This document shows positions 4,337-9,242 of a DNA stretch of 64,000 nt, in pieces. The stretch's first letter is position 1. Each line of letters begins with the position of its first letter. The stretch covers positions 1 through 64,000 of the forward strand of contig NZ_JAQGNQ010000002.1 in the NCBI RefSeq assembly GCF_028291745.1, written 5' to 3'. Under the pieces are notes generated by a model. The model was not told the origin of the DNA. It saw only the letters and a list, made by a program, of their open reading frames with translations, and searched no databases. Made by a program: the position numbers and the translations under genes. This stretch comes from Ramlibacter sp. GTDB taxonomy: Bacteria; Pseudomonadota; Gammaproteobacteria; Burkholderiales; Burkholderiaceae_C.

Positions 4337-4575
4337 AGCGCTGCGGGCCGGCGTGGCGGCAAGTGCGCGCTGCGGTGTTCCCGGCCCGTGAATTCAGCAC
4401 GGAGCAGCGCGGGCAGGCCGTGCCGGATCGTTTCTAATACGGGTCGCGTCCGCCGGACGCTTCACCGCAGGCAGCGGGCCCCGCGCCGCGCGTGTGTGCG
4501 CACTTCGCGGCGCCCGGCGCCACCCCATCCACCCTCGTCAGCGCGCGCTACGGCGCGTGCCAAGGAATCGTTTTC

Positions 4576-5262
4576 TTGCGCAGCACTTTCGGCCAGTCCA
4601 GCCTGGTCCGCCAACTGGCGGCGTGGATGCCCGCGGAAGCGGAAACGCCGGGCATGGACGTCGCCGAGCGGCTCAGTCTCTGGCTGAACGCCTTCGATGC
4701 GATCGGGCTGCAGCAGGCGCAGCAAGCGATCCGGCAGATCCGCACAGCGGCCCCGGCCAGCGGCGATGCGCCGCCCGTTTCGGCGGAGGCGCTGTCCGCC
4801 GACCTGCAGCGCGTGCGCAGCGCGCTGGCCGGCGCGATCGCGCAGGACCCGCGCAGATTGGCCCTCAGCCCCGAGGGCAGCAAGCCCTGGCAGCAAAGGC
4901 ACCTCGAACTGCAGCGGCAGATGGAGCAGATGATCCAGCCCCTGCGCGAACACGTGCAGCAGGCGCTCGCGCGCGTCTCGCCGCGACTGCGTCAACTGGC
5001 CGCGCTCGATGCCGTCCTGGCCCAGGCGCTGGCCGCGCGCGAGCAGGCGGTGCTGCCCACGGTGACCACGCTGCTGGAGCGGCGCTTCGTCCAGTTGCGC
5101 GCGCAAGCAAATGGCGACGGCACGAGCGAGGGCGCAGCCACGTGGCTGGAAGACTTTGCCGGCGAGTGGCGGCAGGTGCTGCTGGCCGAACTGGACCTGC
5201 GCCTGCAACCCGTGCTGGGCCTGATCGAGGCCCTGGGCAATGAATTGAAGAATCGAGCATGA
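4576..5262 (+). CDS. DUF3348 family protein, first gene of a Zorya-like motor operon
   Basis: A 228-residue, largely helical protein matching the DUF3348 pattern: an N-terminal RSTFGQSSLVRQLAAW segment, then VAERLSLWLNAFDAIGLQQA, with helical heptad-like stretches to the end. I chose a TTG start at 4576 because AAGGA lies 9 bases upstream and because family members begin close to this RxxFxxxxLxRxLA motif; the GTG at 4492 in the ORF track would add 28 unrelated residues. It overlaps the next gene by 4 bp (ATGA), so the two are translationally coupled. There is no signal peptide or membrane segment, so it is likely cytoplasmic and may contact the motor tail. Function is not established to my knowledge. 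Confidence 0.8.
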   Translation: MRSTFGQSSLVRQLAAWMPAEAETPGMDVAERLSLWLNAFDAIGLQQAQQAIRQIRTAAPASGDAPPVSAEALSADLQRVRSALAGAIAQDPRRLALSPEGSKPWQQRHLELQRQMEQMIQPLREHVQQALARVSPRLRQLAALDAVLAQALAAREQAVLPTVTTLLERRFVQLRAQANGDGTSEGAATWLEDFAGEWRQVLLAELDLRLQPVLGLIEALGNELKNRA

Positions 5263-7439
5263 GCAAGCGTTTTTTTGTGGCCGCCTTCGCGATCGGTGCA
5301 GCGGCCGTCCTGTGGGTGGCGCTGGGCTTTGTCGGCGCCGGCTGGTTGCCGCTCGCGATGACCGTGGCGATCGGCGCGGTGTACCTGGTCGGTGCCTTCG
5401 AGCTGCGGCAGTACCGCGCCGCGAGCGCCGGACTGGCGGCGGCGCTGGATCACGTTCCGCAGCCGCTGGCGCAACTCGCCGACTGGCTGCCGCAGGTGCC
5501 GCCCTCGCTGCGCAACACCGTGCGCCTGCGCGTCGAAGGCGAGCGGGTGGGGCTGCCCGGGCCGGCGCTGACGCCGTATCTGGTCGGCCTGCTGGTGATG
5601 CTCGGCATGCTGGGCACTTTCCTCGGCATGGTCGTCACCTTCAAGGGCGCGGTCTTCGCACTGGAGGGCTCGACCGATCTGCAGGCGATCCGCTCCGCGC
5701 TGGCGGCGCCGATCAAGGGCCTGGGGCTTTCCTTCGGCACCTCGGTGGCGGGCGTCGCGGCCTCGGCCATGCTGGGCCTGATGTCGGCGATCGGCCGGCG
5801 CGAGCGGCTGGAGCTGGCGCGCCAGCTCGATGCGCTGATCGCGACCACCTTGCTGCCCTTTTCACGGGCGCAGCAGCGACAGGAGACGGTGCGCGCGGTG
5901 CAAGCGCAGGCGCACGCGCTGCCGCAGGTGGTGCACCAGCTCGAGGCGATGATGGAGCGCATGGAGCGGCGCAGCGAGCAGCTCGATGCGCAACTGCTGG
6001 CCCGGCACGCGCAGCTGCAGGCTGAAGTCACCCGTGCCTACGGCGAGCTCGCACACACGGTGGGCGCCGCGCTGAAGGAGAGCCTGGATGCCGGTGCGGC
6101 CGCGGCGGGCGAGAGCATCCGGCCCGTGGTGGTCGGCGCGATGGCGCAGGTGGTGCAAGAGGCGCAGCGCCTGCATGAGCGCCTGGGCACCGTGGCGCAG
6201 GGCCAGGTGGACACCTTGTCGCAGCAGTTCGATGCCAGCGCGCGCAACGTGGCGCAGACCTGGTCGGCCGCGCTGCAGCGGCACGAGCGCAGCAGCGAGG
6301 CCGTGGGCGCGGGACTGGAGCGCTCGCTCGTGGCCTTCGCCGCCAACTTCGAGCAGCGCAGTGCCAGCCTCGTTGCCACCGTTGCCGACAGCCTGGCGCA
6401 CGCGCAATCAGACCAGGAACGCGCGCATCAGCAGAAGCTGCAGGCCTTCACGCAGGCGCTGGTGGCCATGTCCGCCGACCTGCAAGCGCAATGGGGGCGT
6501 GCCGGCGAGCAGGCGGTCGCGCAGCAGCAGGCCGTGTGGGCCGCGCTGGAGCAGGCCAGCAGCGACATCACGCAACGCACCGCCACGCAGGCGGGCCGCA
6601 CGCTGGGCGAGGTTGCGCGCCTGCTGGATCAATCGCACGCATTGGTGCACGCGCGCAGCGAGAGCGAAGCGCGCTGGAGCGAGCAGCACGGCCAGCGCAT
6701 GGACCAACTTGCGGGCCTGTGGCGCAGCGAACTCGCCGCGTTGCGGCAGGAGGAAAGCCTGCGCGGCGAAGCGGCAGTCGCGCGCCTGGGCGACCTGCAG
6801 GGCGAAGTCACGCGCCATCTCGCAACGCTTGGCGCCGCGCTCGAAGCGCCGTTGACGCGCCTGCTGCAGACCGCCGCGGAAGTACCGCAAGCCGCGGCCG
6901 GCGTGATCACCGAACTGCGCGCGGAAATGAGCCGCGTCGCCGAACGCGACAACCTGGCCCTGAGCGAACGCAGCGCCTTGCTGGAGCAGCTCGGTGCGCT
7001 GCTGCAGGCGCTGCAGCACGACTCGGGCGCGCAGCGGGGTGCGATCGAAAGCCTGGTGGCCTCGGCGGGCTCCTTGTTCGATCGCGCGGGGCAGCAGTTT
7101 GCCCACACGCTCGATGCGCACGCCGGAGCGGCCGGCGCAGTGGCGGCGCAGGTCACCGGCAGCGCGCTGGAGCTGGCCAGCCTGGGCGAAGCGTTCGGCG
7201 CGGGCGTGCAGCAGTTCCAGGCCAGCAACGAGAAACTGGTCGAGACGCTGCAGCGCATCGAAGCCTCGCTGCAGCGCTCCACGGCGCGCAGCGACGAGCA
7301 ACTTGCCTACTACGTGGCGCAGGCGCGCGAGGTGATCGACCTGAGCATCGCCTCGCAACAGGGCCTGGTCGACCACCTGCGCCAGCTGGAGGGCAAGCCT
7401 GCCAAGCCGCTGGCGCTGGTCGAGGGTAGCCGCGGATGA
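5259..7439 (+). CDS. DUF802 protein: MotA/ExbB-like stator subunit with long coiled coil (ZorA-like)
   Basis: A 726-residue membrane protein. Two helices span residues 5-50. A second pair follows at about 105-130 (LVGLLVMLGMLGTFLGMVV) and 145-175 (IKGLGLSFGTSVAGVAASAML); these match the two conserved pore segments of MotA/TolQ/ExbB-type proton channels. Residues from about 185 to the end form a very long alanine/glutamine/glutamate-rich coiled coil with repeated DUF802-type units. A stator-like head with a long cytoplasmic tail is the architecture of ZorA in Zorya anti-phage systems. It overlaps both neighbours by 4 bp and is followed directly by a MotB/OmpA-type partner, as expected for a 5:2 motor. 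The motor role is inferred. Confidence 0.85.
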   Translation: MSKRFFVAAFAIGAAAVLWVALGFVGAGWLPLAMTVAIGAVYLVGAFELRQYRAASAGLAAALDHVPQPLAQLADWLPQVPPSLRNTVRLRVEGERVGLPGPALTPYLVGLLVMLGMLGTFLGMVVTFKGAVFALEGSTDLQAIRSALAAPIKGLGLSFGTSVAGVAASAMLGLMSAIGRRERLELARQLDALIATTLLPFSRAQQRQETVRAVQAQAHALPQVVHQLEAMMERMERRSEQLDAQLLARHAQLQAEVTRAYGELAHTVGAALKESLDAGAAAAGESIRPVVVGAMAQVVQEAQRLHERLGTVAQGQVDTLSQQFDASARNVAQTWSAALQRHERSSEAVGAGLERSLVAFAANFEQRSASLVATVADSLAHAQSDQERAHQQKLQAFTQALVAMSADLQAQWGRAGEQAVAQQQAVWAALEQASSDITQRTATQAGRTLGEVARLLDQSHALVHARSESEARWSEQHGQRMDQLAGLWRSELAALRQEESLRGEAAVARLGDLQGEVTRHLATLGAALEAPLTRLLQTAAEVPQAAAGVITELRAEMSRVAERDNLALSERSALLEQLGALLQALQHDSGAQRGAIESLVASAGSLFDRAGQQFAHTLDAHAGAAGAVAAQVTGSALELASLGEAFGAGVQQFQASNEKLVETLQRIEASLQRSTARSDEQLAYYVAQAREVIDLSIASQQGLVDHLRQLEGKPAKPLALVEGSRG

Positions 7440-8095
7440 TGGAACTGGATGAAGGCGACCTCGGCGCCGAGGCGACCGCGCCGGTGTGGGCGGTGTTCGG
7501 CGATCTGATGGCCGGCCTGCTGGGCGCCTTCGTGCTGGTGCTGGTGGGCGTGCTGGTGGTGCAGATGGACCTGGTGTCGCATCTGCAGGAGGAGGTGGGC
7601 AAGCGCCGCGTCGAGGAGCAGCGGCGCATGGCGCTGGAACAGGCGCTGGCCGTTCCGCTGGCCTCGGGGCGCGTCACGCTCAACGGGGGGCGCATCGGCA
7701 TCAGCGGCAGCGTGCTGTTTCCGCTCAACTCCGACCAGCTGCGGCCCGAAGGGCGGCAACTGCTGCAAAGCCTGGTGCAGCCGCTGCGGGTATACCTGGG
7801 CGAGCGCAACGAGATGCTGATGGTCAGCGGCTTCACCGACGACAAGCCGATCCAGGAAGGCAACCGACGCTTTGCCGACAACCTTGAGCTGTCCGCGCAG
7901 CGCGCGCTCACCGTGACGCGCGCGCTGATCGAGGAAGGCATGCCGTCCGCGCAGGTGTTCGCGGCGGCCTTCGGGCCCGAACAGCCCGTCGCCTCCAACG
8001 GCAGCGAACAGGGGCGCTCCTTGAATCGGCGGGTGGAGATGGCCCCGGTGCCCAGAACCGCAGCCCCCGCGGCGGTGAACAGCGGGCGGCCATGA
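7436..8095 (+). CDS. OmpA/MotB-like peptidoglycan-binding protein (ZorB-like)
   Basis: A 219-residue protein with one N-terminal membrane helix and a C-terminal OmpA/MotB domain. The helix begins VFGDLMAGLLGAFVLVLVG, and Asp23 sits where MotB and ZorB carry the proton-conducting aspartate. A short coiled coil (LQEEVGKRRVEEQRRMALEQ) links it to the OmpA domain, seen as VLFPLNSDQLRPEGRQLL, LMVSGFTDDKPI, NLELSAQRALTVTRALIEEG and a final SLNRRVEM. The domain would anchor the complex to the cell wall. It overlaps the DUF802 gene and the DUF2894 gene by 4 bp each. The aspartate and the gene order together argue for a proton-driven stator pair rather than a structural OmpA protein. Confidence 0.88.
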   Translation: MMELDEGDLGAEATAPVWAVFGDLMAGLLGAFVLVLVGVLVVQMDLVSHLQEEVGKRRVEEQRRMALEQALAVPLASGRVTLNGGRIGISGSVLFPLNSDQLRPEGRQLLQSLVQPLRVYLGERNEMLMVSGFTDDKPIQEGNRRFADNLELSAQRALTVTRALIEEGMPSAQVFAAAFGPEQPVASNGSEQGRSLNRRVEMAPVPRTAAPAAVNSGRP

Positions 8096-8823
8096 GCGAG
8101 ACCGCGGCCAGCCCTTTGCCGCAGGACGCAGGCAGCGCGTTGCTGGAGCAGCTTGCCGGCTTGCGCAGCGAGGGCAGATGGCGTAGCGATCCGGTGCGCT
8201 TTCGCTACCTGGAGGCGCTGGCGCAAAAGCTGCAAGGCCAGCCGGCTCCCGTGCAGCGGCTGCTGCAGGAGCGGCTGCAAGCAGCACTCGCCGATTTTGG
8301 CGCGCGCGTCGAGCAGTGCCAGCAGGCCGCACGCGCGGAAGCCGAGGGCCTGATAGGCCGACATCCGGCGCAGGCCGGGGCGCTGCGCCGTCTGCAGGTA
8401 ACGGGCGACATCGTCGCGATGCGCCGCCTGGTCGCCCCGGCGCAGGCAAAGGCCGCATGCGCGCCCTTGATGCATTTGAACGAATCCATCCGCGCGGCCG
8501 GGCGCCGCGGCGACCCCGCTGGCGCAGATGCCCCCGAGGCGAACGAACTGGCCAGTGCGCGCCGCTTTCGGGGCTCCTGGGACCGGCAGCGCAGCGAACA
8601 GCAGGTGGAGCAGGCGCTGGCCCGCAAGCCGGCGCAAGCAGGCCCGCTGAACTCGCACGTGCTGGTGCTGCAAGCGCTGGAGTTGATGCGCGAGCTGTCG
8701 CCGGACTACCTGCGGCACTTCCTCGCGCACGTCGAATCGCTGCAGTGGCTGGAGCGCTCGCGCGACGCGGCGGCGGCCGCGAAGGCGGGCAAGGTGGCGA
8801 AGGCGCGTCGGCAGAAGAGATGA
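8092..8823 (+). CDS. DUF2894 family protein, last gene of the Zorya-like operon
   Basis: A 243-residue soluble protein with a helical N-terminal half (LLEQLAGLRSEGRWRSDPVRFRYLEALAQKL), a charged middle, and a C-terminal block NSHVLVLQALELMRELSPDYLRHFLAHVESLQWLE that is characteristic of DUF2894. The lysine/arginine-rich C-terminus (KAGKVAKARRQKR) could bind nucleic acid, but no nuclease or helicase motif is visible. Coupled by a 4-bp overlap to the OmpA-like gene. In a Zorya-like system this would fill the effector or accessory position. The family has no function that I can state with confidence. Confidence 0.82.
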   Translation: MSETAASPLPQDAGSALLEQLAGLRSEGRWRSDPVRFRYLEALAQKLQGQPAPVQRLLQERLQAALADFGARVEQCQQAARAEAEGLIGRHPAQAGALRRLQVTGDIVAMRRLVAPAQAKAACAPLMHLNESIRAAGRRGDPAGADAPEANELASARRFRGSWDRQRSEQQVEQALARKPAQAGPLNSHVLVLQALELMRELSPDYLRHFLAHVESLQWLERSRDAAAAAKAGKVAKARRQKR

Positions 8824-8894: not shown

Positions 8895-9242
8895 ATGGAG
8901 GTGATCGATGGCCGCATCGTCATGAGCGACGAAGAGTGGGCGAGGTTTGCCGCCGCCACCTTCGCTCCCTGGAGGCCGCGCACGCCGGCGGAATTCAATG
9001 CCATGGCAGATCTCGGCTCGGCCCGGCACGTGGCGGAAAACACCCGCGGCATCGGCGGCTTCCTGGCGGCGGCGGCCGAGGGCATCAAGTTCGGGCGCAA
9101 CGGCGAAATCAAGTTCCCGCCCAACCAACGCAAGCTGGCCTTTGCCAAGGAGTACGGAACGTGGCCGACGGCGGAACAGTTGCGCCGCTTCGAGTTCAAC
9201 GTGAATGCCCTGGGGCGGCCGCCGCTCAAGCTGGTCCGCTGA
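8895..9242 (+). CDS. Small hypothetical protein (115 aa)
   Basis: An open frame hidden inside a longer track ORF. An AAGGAG site lies 7 bases before the ATG at 8895. The product begins MEVIDGRIVMSDEEWARF and ends NVNALGRPPLKLVR; it looks soluble with a natural composition (KFPPNQRKLAFAKEYGTWPTAEQLRRF). The frame ends 14 bases before a strong hairpin, which supports it as a real gene. I do not recognise a family. It is 71 bp downstream of the DUF2894 gene and may be transcribed with that operon, but it is not coupled to it. Confidence 0.7.
   Translation: MEVIDGRIVMSDEEWARFAAATFAPWRPRTPAEFNAMADLGSARHVAENTRGIGGFLAAAAEGIKFGRNGEIKFPPNQRKLAFAKEYGTWPTAEQLRRFEFNVNALGRPPLKLVR

What the first reader, a model, noticed from the sequence alone, without database searches (positions are those of the whole stretch)
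4576..8823. Four-gene Zorya-like motor operon (DUF3348, DUF802/MotA-like, MotB/OmpA-like, DUF2894)
Seen: four genes joined by 4-bp overlaps; a MotA/TolQ-type pore pair followed by over 500 residues of coiled coil; a partner with a single helix carrying Asp23 (VFGDLMAGLLGAF) and an OmpA peptidoglycan domain. Known: ZorA/ZorB of the Zorya anti-phage systems have this head-plus-long-tail and MotB-like build, and effectors differ by type. Inference: DUF3348 and DUF2894 fill the accessory or effector positions. From memory, type III Zorya (ZorABFG) is a four-gene variant found in proteobacteria; I cannot confirm that ZorF/ZorG equal DUF3348/DUF2894.
Basis: partly seen in the sequence, partly recalled or inferred. 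Interest (0 to 1): 0.85.

Follow-up and report, generated by a model that had tools for sequence, protein, structure and literature searches.

The report
Ordinary type III Zorya defence operon
This is a complete type III Zorya operon, an already described four-gene anti-phage motor system, in a Ramlibacter genome; it is an ordinary member, although how the type III accessory proteins act is still unknown.

Summary
Four co-directional genes at 4576-8823 overlap by 4 bp each and encode DUF3348, a MotA/TolQ-type protein with a long tail (ZorA), a MotB/OmpA-type protein (ZorB) and DUF2894. Type III was named in 2021, and one Stenotrophomonas operon protected E. coli from phage.

Added here: the gene order is kept in 75 of 80 homologous loci (the other five contigs end too early). 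The ion-path residues are invariant. The ZorA tail varies in its middle but keeps a near-invariant tip. Within Ramlibacter the operon is patchy, almost never has the same neighbours, and its four genes track one another but hardly the host, so it is a mobile accessory unit, though not in a defence island. Both accessory proteins are predicted all-helical with no enzyme-like fold, unlike the DNA-acting ZorCD and ZorE of types I and II. Phage defence by this copy is inferred, not tested. ZorF and ZorG labels in the papers and in PADLOC are swapped.

The parts
4576..5262 (+). DUF3348 protein, 228 aa (ZorF in the papers, labelled ZorG in PADLOC-DB); TTG start, possible GTG start at 4492
   Evidence: Pfam PF11828 1.9e-48; PADLOC PDLC00658 1.2e-56; AF2 model all-helical, pLDDT 88.7, no PDB match with E<=0.001
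5259..7439 (+). ZorA type III: MotA/TolQ/ExbB-like membrane head (T120 and S162 invariant), about 540-residue cytoplasmic tail with conserved tip RSDEQLAYYVAQAREVIDLS
   Evidence: PADLOC ZorA3 4.5e-247; alignment A3; profile hit to solved ZorA 8vvn 8.5e-8; conservation profile
7436..8095 (+). ZorB type III: single N-terminal helix with invariant Asp23, OmpA-like peptidoglycan-binding domain
   Evidence: PADLOC ZorB3 3.9e-108; Pfam OmpA 3.4e-17; alignment A4; Asp aligned to solved ZorB chains
8092..8823 (+). DUF2894 protein, 243 aa (ZorG in the papers, labelled ZorF in PADLOC-DB) with a conserved basic C-terminal tail
   Evidence: Pfam PF11445 2.5e-48; PADLOC PDLC00652 8.7e-55; AF2 model all-helical, pLDDT 84.8, pTM 0.55; tail charge

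Best explanation
This is a complete type III Zorya anti-phage operon. By homology, ZorA and ZorB form a 5:2 inner-membrane ion-driven motor: the ZorB OmpA domain grips peptidoglycan, Asp23 of ZorB and the Thr/Ser ring of ZorA carry the ions, and the long ZorA tail reaches into the cytoplasm. Phage-induced disturbance of the envelope would anchor ZorB and start ion flow, and movement of the tail would engage the two accessory proteins, probably through the conserved tail tip. Supported here: family membership, operon integrity, conservation of the ion-path residues, and inheritance as one mobile unit. Inferred: assembly, rotation, sensing, docking of DUF3348/DUF2894 on the tail, and phage defence by this copy. 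How the accessory proteins stop the phage is unknown; they are not recognisable nucleases, so they more likely act as adaptors, regulators of the motor, or binders (DUF2894 through its basic tail) than as DNA-cutting enzymes.
For: PADLOC hits for all four subunits; published definition and plaquing data for a Stenotrophomonas type III operon; type I and II structures and mutagenesis; the same gene order in 75 of 80 named loci, the rest cut by contig ends; invariant D23, T120, S162; 27 of 44 good Ramlibacter genomes and 55 of 180 in the family carry DUF3348; flank genes shared with 0.13 of 20 other regions against 9.72 of 19 for a TolQ control; distance correlation with RpoB 0.19-0.24 for the four genes against 0.66 for the Tol region, and 0.64-0.81 among the four.
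Against: No experiment on this operon. It lies among metabolic genes, not in a defence island. No copy was found in viral contigs. The only functional test of type III that I found is one plasmid-borne operon in E. coli.
Confidence: 0.93

Rival explanations
1. A housekeeping envelope machine like Tol-Pal or Exb: the four genes maintain the cell envelope, and the reported phage protection is a side effect of overexpression.
For: MotA/TolQ and OmpA folds are shared with Tol-Pal, Exb and flagellar stators; no defence island around it; single copy in nearly all carriers.
Against: Present in only 27 of 44 good genomes of the genus, no conserved position, weak tracking of the host tree, and the genome has its own tolQ elsewhere.
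Confidence: 0.05
2. A flagellar or gliding stator with accessory proteins.
For: MotB-like ZorB with moderate similarity to MotB models.
Against: Type III Zorya models score hundreds of bits higher than any MotA/MotB model; the very long tail is not a stator feature; no flagellar gene among the neighbours examined.
Confidence: 0.01

Closest known systems
Zorya type III (ZorABFG; Payne et al. 2021, PMC8565338)
   Same: All four subunits, domain content, gene set, proteobacterial host range
   Different: Nothing diagnostic; a further example in another genus
Zorya types I and II (ZorABCD, ZorABE; PMC11890865)
   Same: ZorA/ZorB motor, ion-path aspartate and Thr/Ser ring, peptidoglycan-binding domain, long tail
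   Different: No ZorC, ZorD helicase or ZorE nickase; two all-helical DUF proteins instead; ZorA/ZorB only distantly similar to type I/II models (ZorA 1.9e-5, ZorB 4.5e-17)
Tol-Pal, Exb and MotAB stators
   Same: Ion-driven A/B membrane core; OmpA-like domain as in MotB
   Different: Much longer A-subunit tail, extra DUF proteins, mobile distribution

Membership tests
Zorya type III | ZorA with MotA/ExbB/TolQ core and long cytoplasmic tail | tested here: met
   PADLOC ZorA3 4.5e-247 over residues 1-713
Zorya type III | ZorB with N-terminal helix, Asp and OmpA domain | tested here: met
   PADLOC ZorB3 3.9e-108; D23 invariant, aligned to 8vvn D24
Zorya type III | DUF3348 and DUF2894 genes flanking the zorAB pair | tested here: met
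   Pfam and PADLOC hits; same order in all homologous loci with full contigs
Zorya type III | Protection against phage | not testable with these tools
   Shown for the Stenotrophomonas nitritireducens operon only
Zorya type III | 5:2 ZorA:ZorB assembly | not testable with these tools
   Seen by cryo-EM for types I and II; no multimer prediction available here
Zorya type I / II | ZorC and ZorD, or ZorE, present | tested here: not met
   No hit to ZorC, ZorD or ZorE among the four proteins at E<=1; adjacent genes are metabolic or unknown
Tol-Pal / housekeeping envelope system | Universal in the clade with conserved neighbourhood | tested here: not met
   27 of 44 genomes; flanks not shared, those of the TolQ control are

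The most novel reading that the evidence does not exclude
Type III Zorya stops phages without a nuclease or helicase: DUF3348 and DUF2894 are helical, non-enzymatic partners of the motor, docking on the conserved ZorA tail tip, so the effect comes from the motor itself (ion flux, envelope) or from binding of phage or host targets.
Probability: 0.45. Interest if true: 0.5.

Novelty: new member of a known kind. Interest (0 to 1): 0.25.

Why it matters
The operon itself is expected. It matters slightly because type III is the least studied Zorya type: the evidence here that its four genes are inherited as one mobile unit favours a defence role over a housekeeping one, and the absence of any enzyme-like fold in its accessory proteins makes the question 'what is the effector?' directly testable.

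Tried and rejected
Housekeeping origin was tested by prevalence, neighbourhood and distance correlation and not supported. Two first distance comparisons were discarded because wrong reading frames were taken for RpoB; they were redone with RpoB checked by motif. An ordinary metabolic gene (dienelactone hydrolase) also has variable neighbours in this genus (3.8% of other regions share a flank gene, against 0.65% for Zorya and 51% for Tol), so variable position alone shows 'accessory', not 'defence'. Fold comparison of both accessory models gave only non-significant helical-bundle matches. Viral contigs held no copy. Most 'plasmid' records with DUF3348 are non-mobilizable by prediction and several are of megabase size. 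The small ORF at 8895-9242 is not part of the operon: found in only 2 of 59 Ramlibacter genomes. A consensus scan found no promoter or terminator that marks the operon ends.

Full report
The four genes are real and placed as described. Six-frame listing and sequence reading give DUF3348 4576-5262, ZorA 5259-7439, ZorB 7436-8095 and DUF2894 8092-8823, all on the + strand, with 4-bp overlaps at each junction. Pfam names DUF3348, DUF802, OmpA and DUF2894.

PADLOC-DB settles the family: ZorA3 4.5e-247, ZorB3 3.9e-108, and both accessory families at 1e-54 or better; similarity to type I and II ZorA is faint and no ZorC, ZorD or ZorE model is hit. Type III was defined in 2021 from 6,401 gene pairs flanked by DUF3348 and DUF2894 genes, and an operon from Stenotrophomonas nitritireducens reduced plaquing of at least one phage and protected liquid cultures at MOI below 0.1. 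[quoted passage not shown] Both papers call DUF3348 ZorF and DUF2894 ZorG, while the PADLOC-DB 2.0.0 models carry the opposite labels.

The window genome has one copy of DUF3348 and its own tolQ elsewhere.

Eighty named homologous loci were fetched by ZorB. In 75 of them all four genes are present in the order DUF3348-ZorA-ZorB-DUF2894, usually with 4-bp overlaps or short gaps; in the other five the contig ends before DUF3348 (some start sites in that table were chosen automatically and are unreliable). ZorB length is nearly constant (209-234 aa) but ZorA varies from about 530 to 1088 aa (the shortest value listed, 456, is a split frame). Along ZorA the head and roughly the last 90 residues are conserved and the middle of the tail varies in length and sequence. 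The tip motif RSDEQLAYYVAQAREVIDLS is nearly invariant, which suggests a docking site; that is inference.

The ion path is intact: ZorB Asp23 is invariant and aligns with Asp24 of Shewanella ZorB and position 26 of the 8qyd chain; ZorA T120 and S162 are invariant and lie in the stretch aligned to solved ZorA 8vvn. The 2025 paper describes this Asp packed against a Ser/Thr ring in types I and II.

DUF3348 (pLDDT 88.7, pTM 0.84) and DUF2894 (pLDDT 84.8, pTM 0.55) are predicted all-helical, and neither has a PDB match with E<=0.001. DUF2894 ends in a basic tail: net charge of at least +4 in the last 22 residues in 77 of 80 homologues, against 1 of 75 for DUF3348. The conserved residues do not form a nuclease motif that I recognise. 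This contrasts with ZorE (nickase) and ZorCD in types I and II.

Distribution: 27 of 44 good Ramlibacter genomes, 55 of 180 in the family and 18 of 270 in the order carry DUF3348. In 21 Ramlibacter regions the flanking genes are almost never shared (0.13 of 20 regions on average), against 9.72 of 19 for TolQ regions treated alike. In one relative (L212, genome G324) the window's left neighbours lie together in the same order without Zorya, whose copy is elsewhere in that genome. Protein distances of the four genes agree with one another (rho 0.64-0.81) but only weakly with RpoB (0.19-0.24), while the Tol control agrees with RpoB at 0.66. The operon therefore behaves as one mobile accessory unit. 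A caveat is that an ordinary metabolic gene also changes neighbours in this genus.

The neighbours are ordinary: an isocitrate dehydrogenase-type protein, an oxidoreductase, TctC, dienelactone hydrolase and an RND pump in the window, and a mixture of metabolic families around the other copies, with only isolated PADLOC matches. No tRNA lies in the window. Tetranucleotide content of the operon is the most deviant of 60 stretches of equal length, but the composition of the coiled-coil tail may explain this.

Its function here is inferred from homology.

Noticed in passing
PADLOC-DB 2.0.0 models PDLC00652-00658: ZorF and ZorG labels are swapped relative to the two papers (papers: ZorF = DUF3348, ZorG = DUF2894).
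   Followed up: yes
8895-9242: Small gene of no known family just downstream, found in only 2 of 59 Ramlibacter genomes; the relative in G315 (53% identity) is in a genome where no DUF3348 was found.
   Followed up: partly
5259-7439 (ZorA residues about 640-715): Near-invariant tail tip after a tail middle of variable length in the type III ZorA proteins examined.
   Followed up: partly
G349:C1:212934-213546: DUF3348 split into two pieces in one Ramlibacter genome, possibly a decayed copy or a poor assembly (63% complete).
   Followed up: no
G302 (C122 and C24): One Ramlibacter genome carries two DUF3348 copies; contamination is listed as 9%, so this may be an artefact.
   Followed up: no
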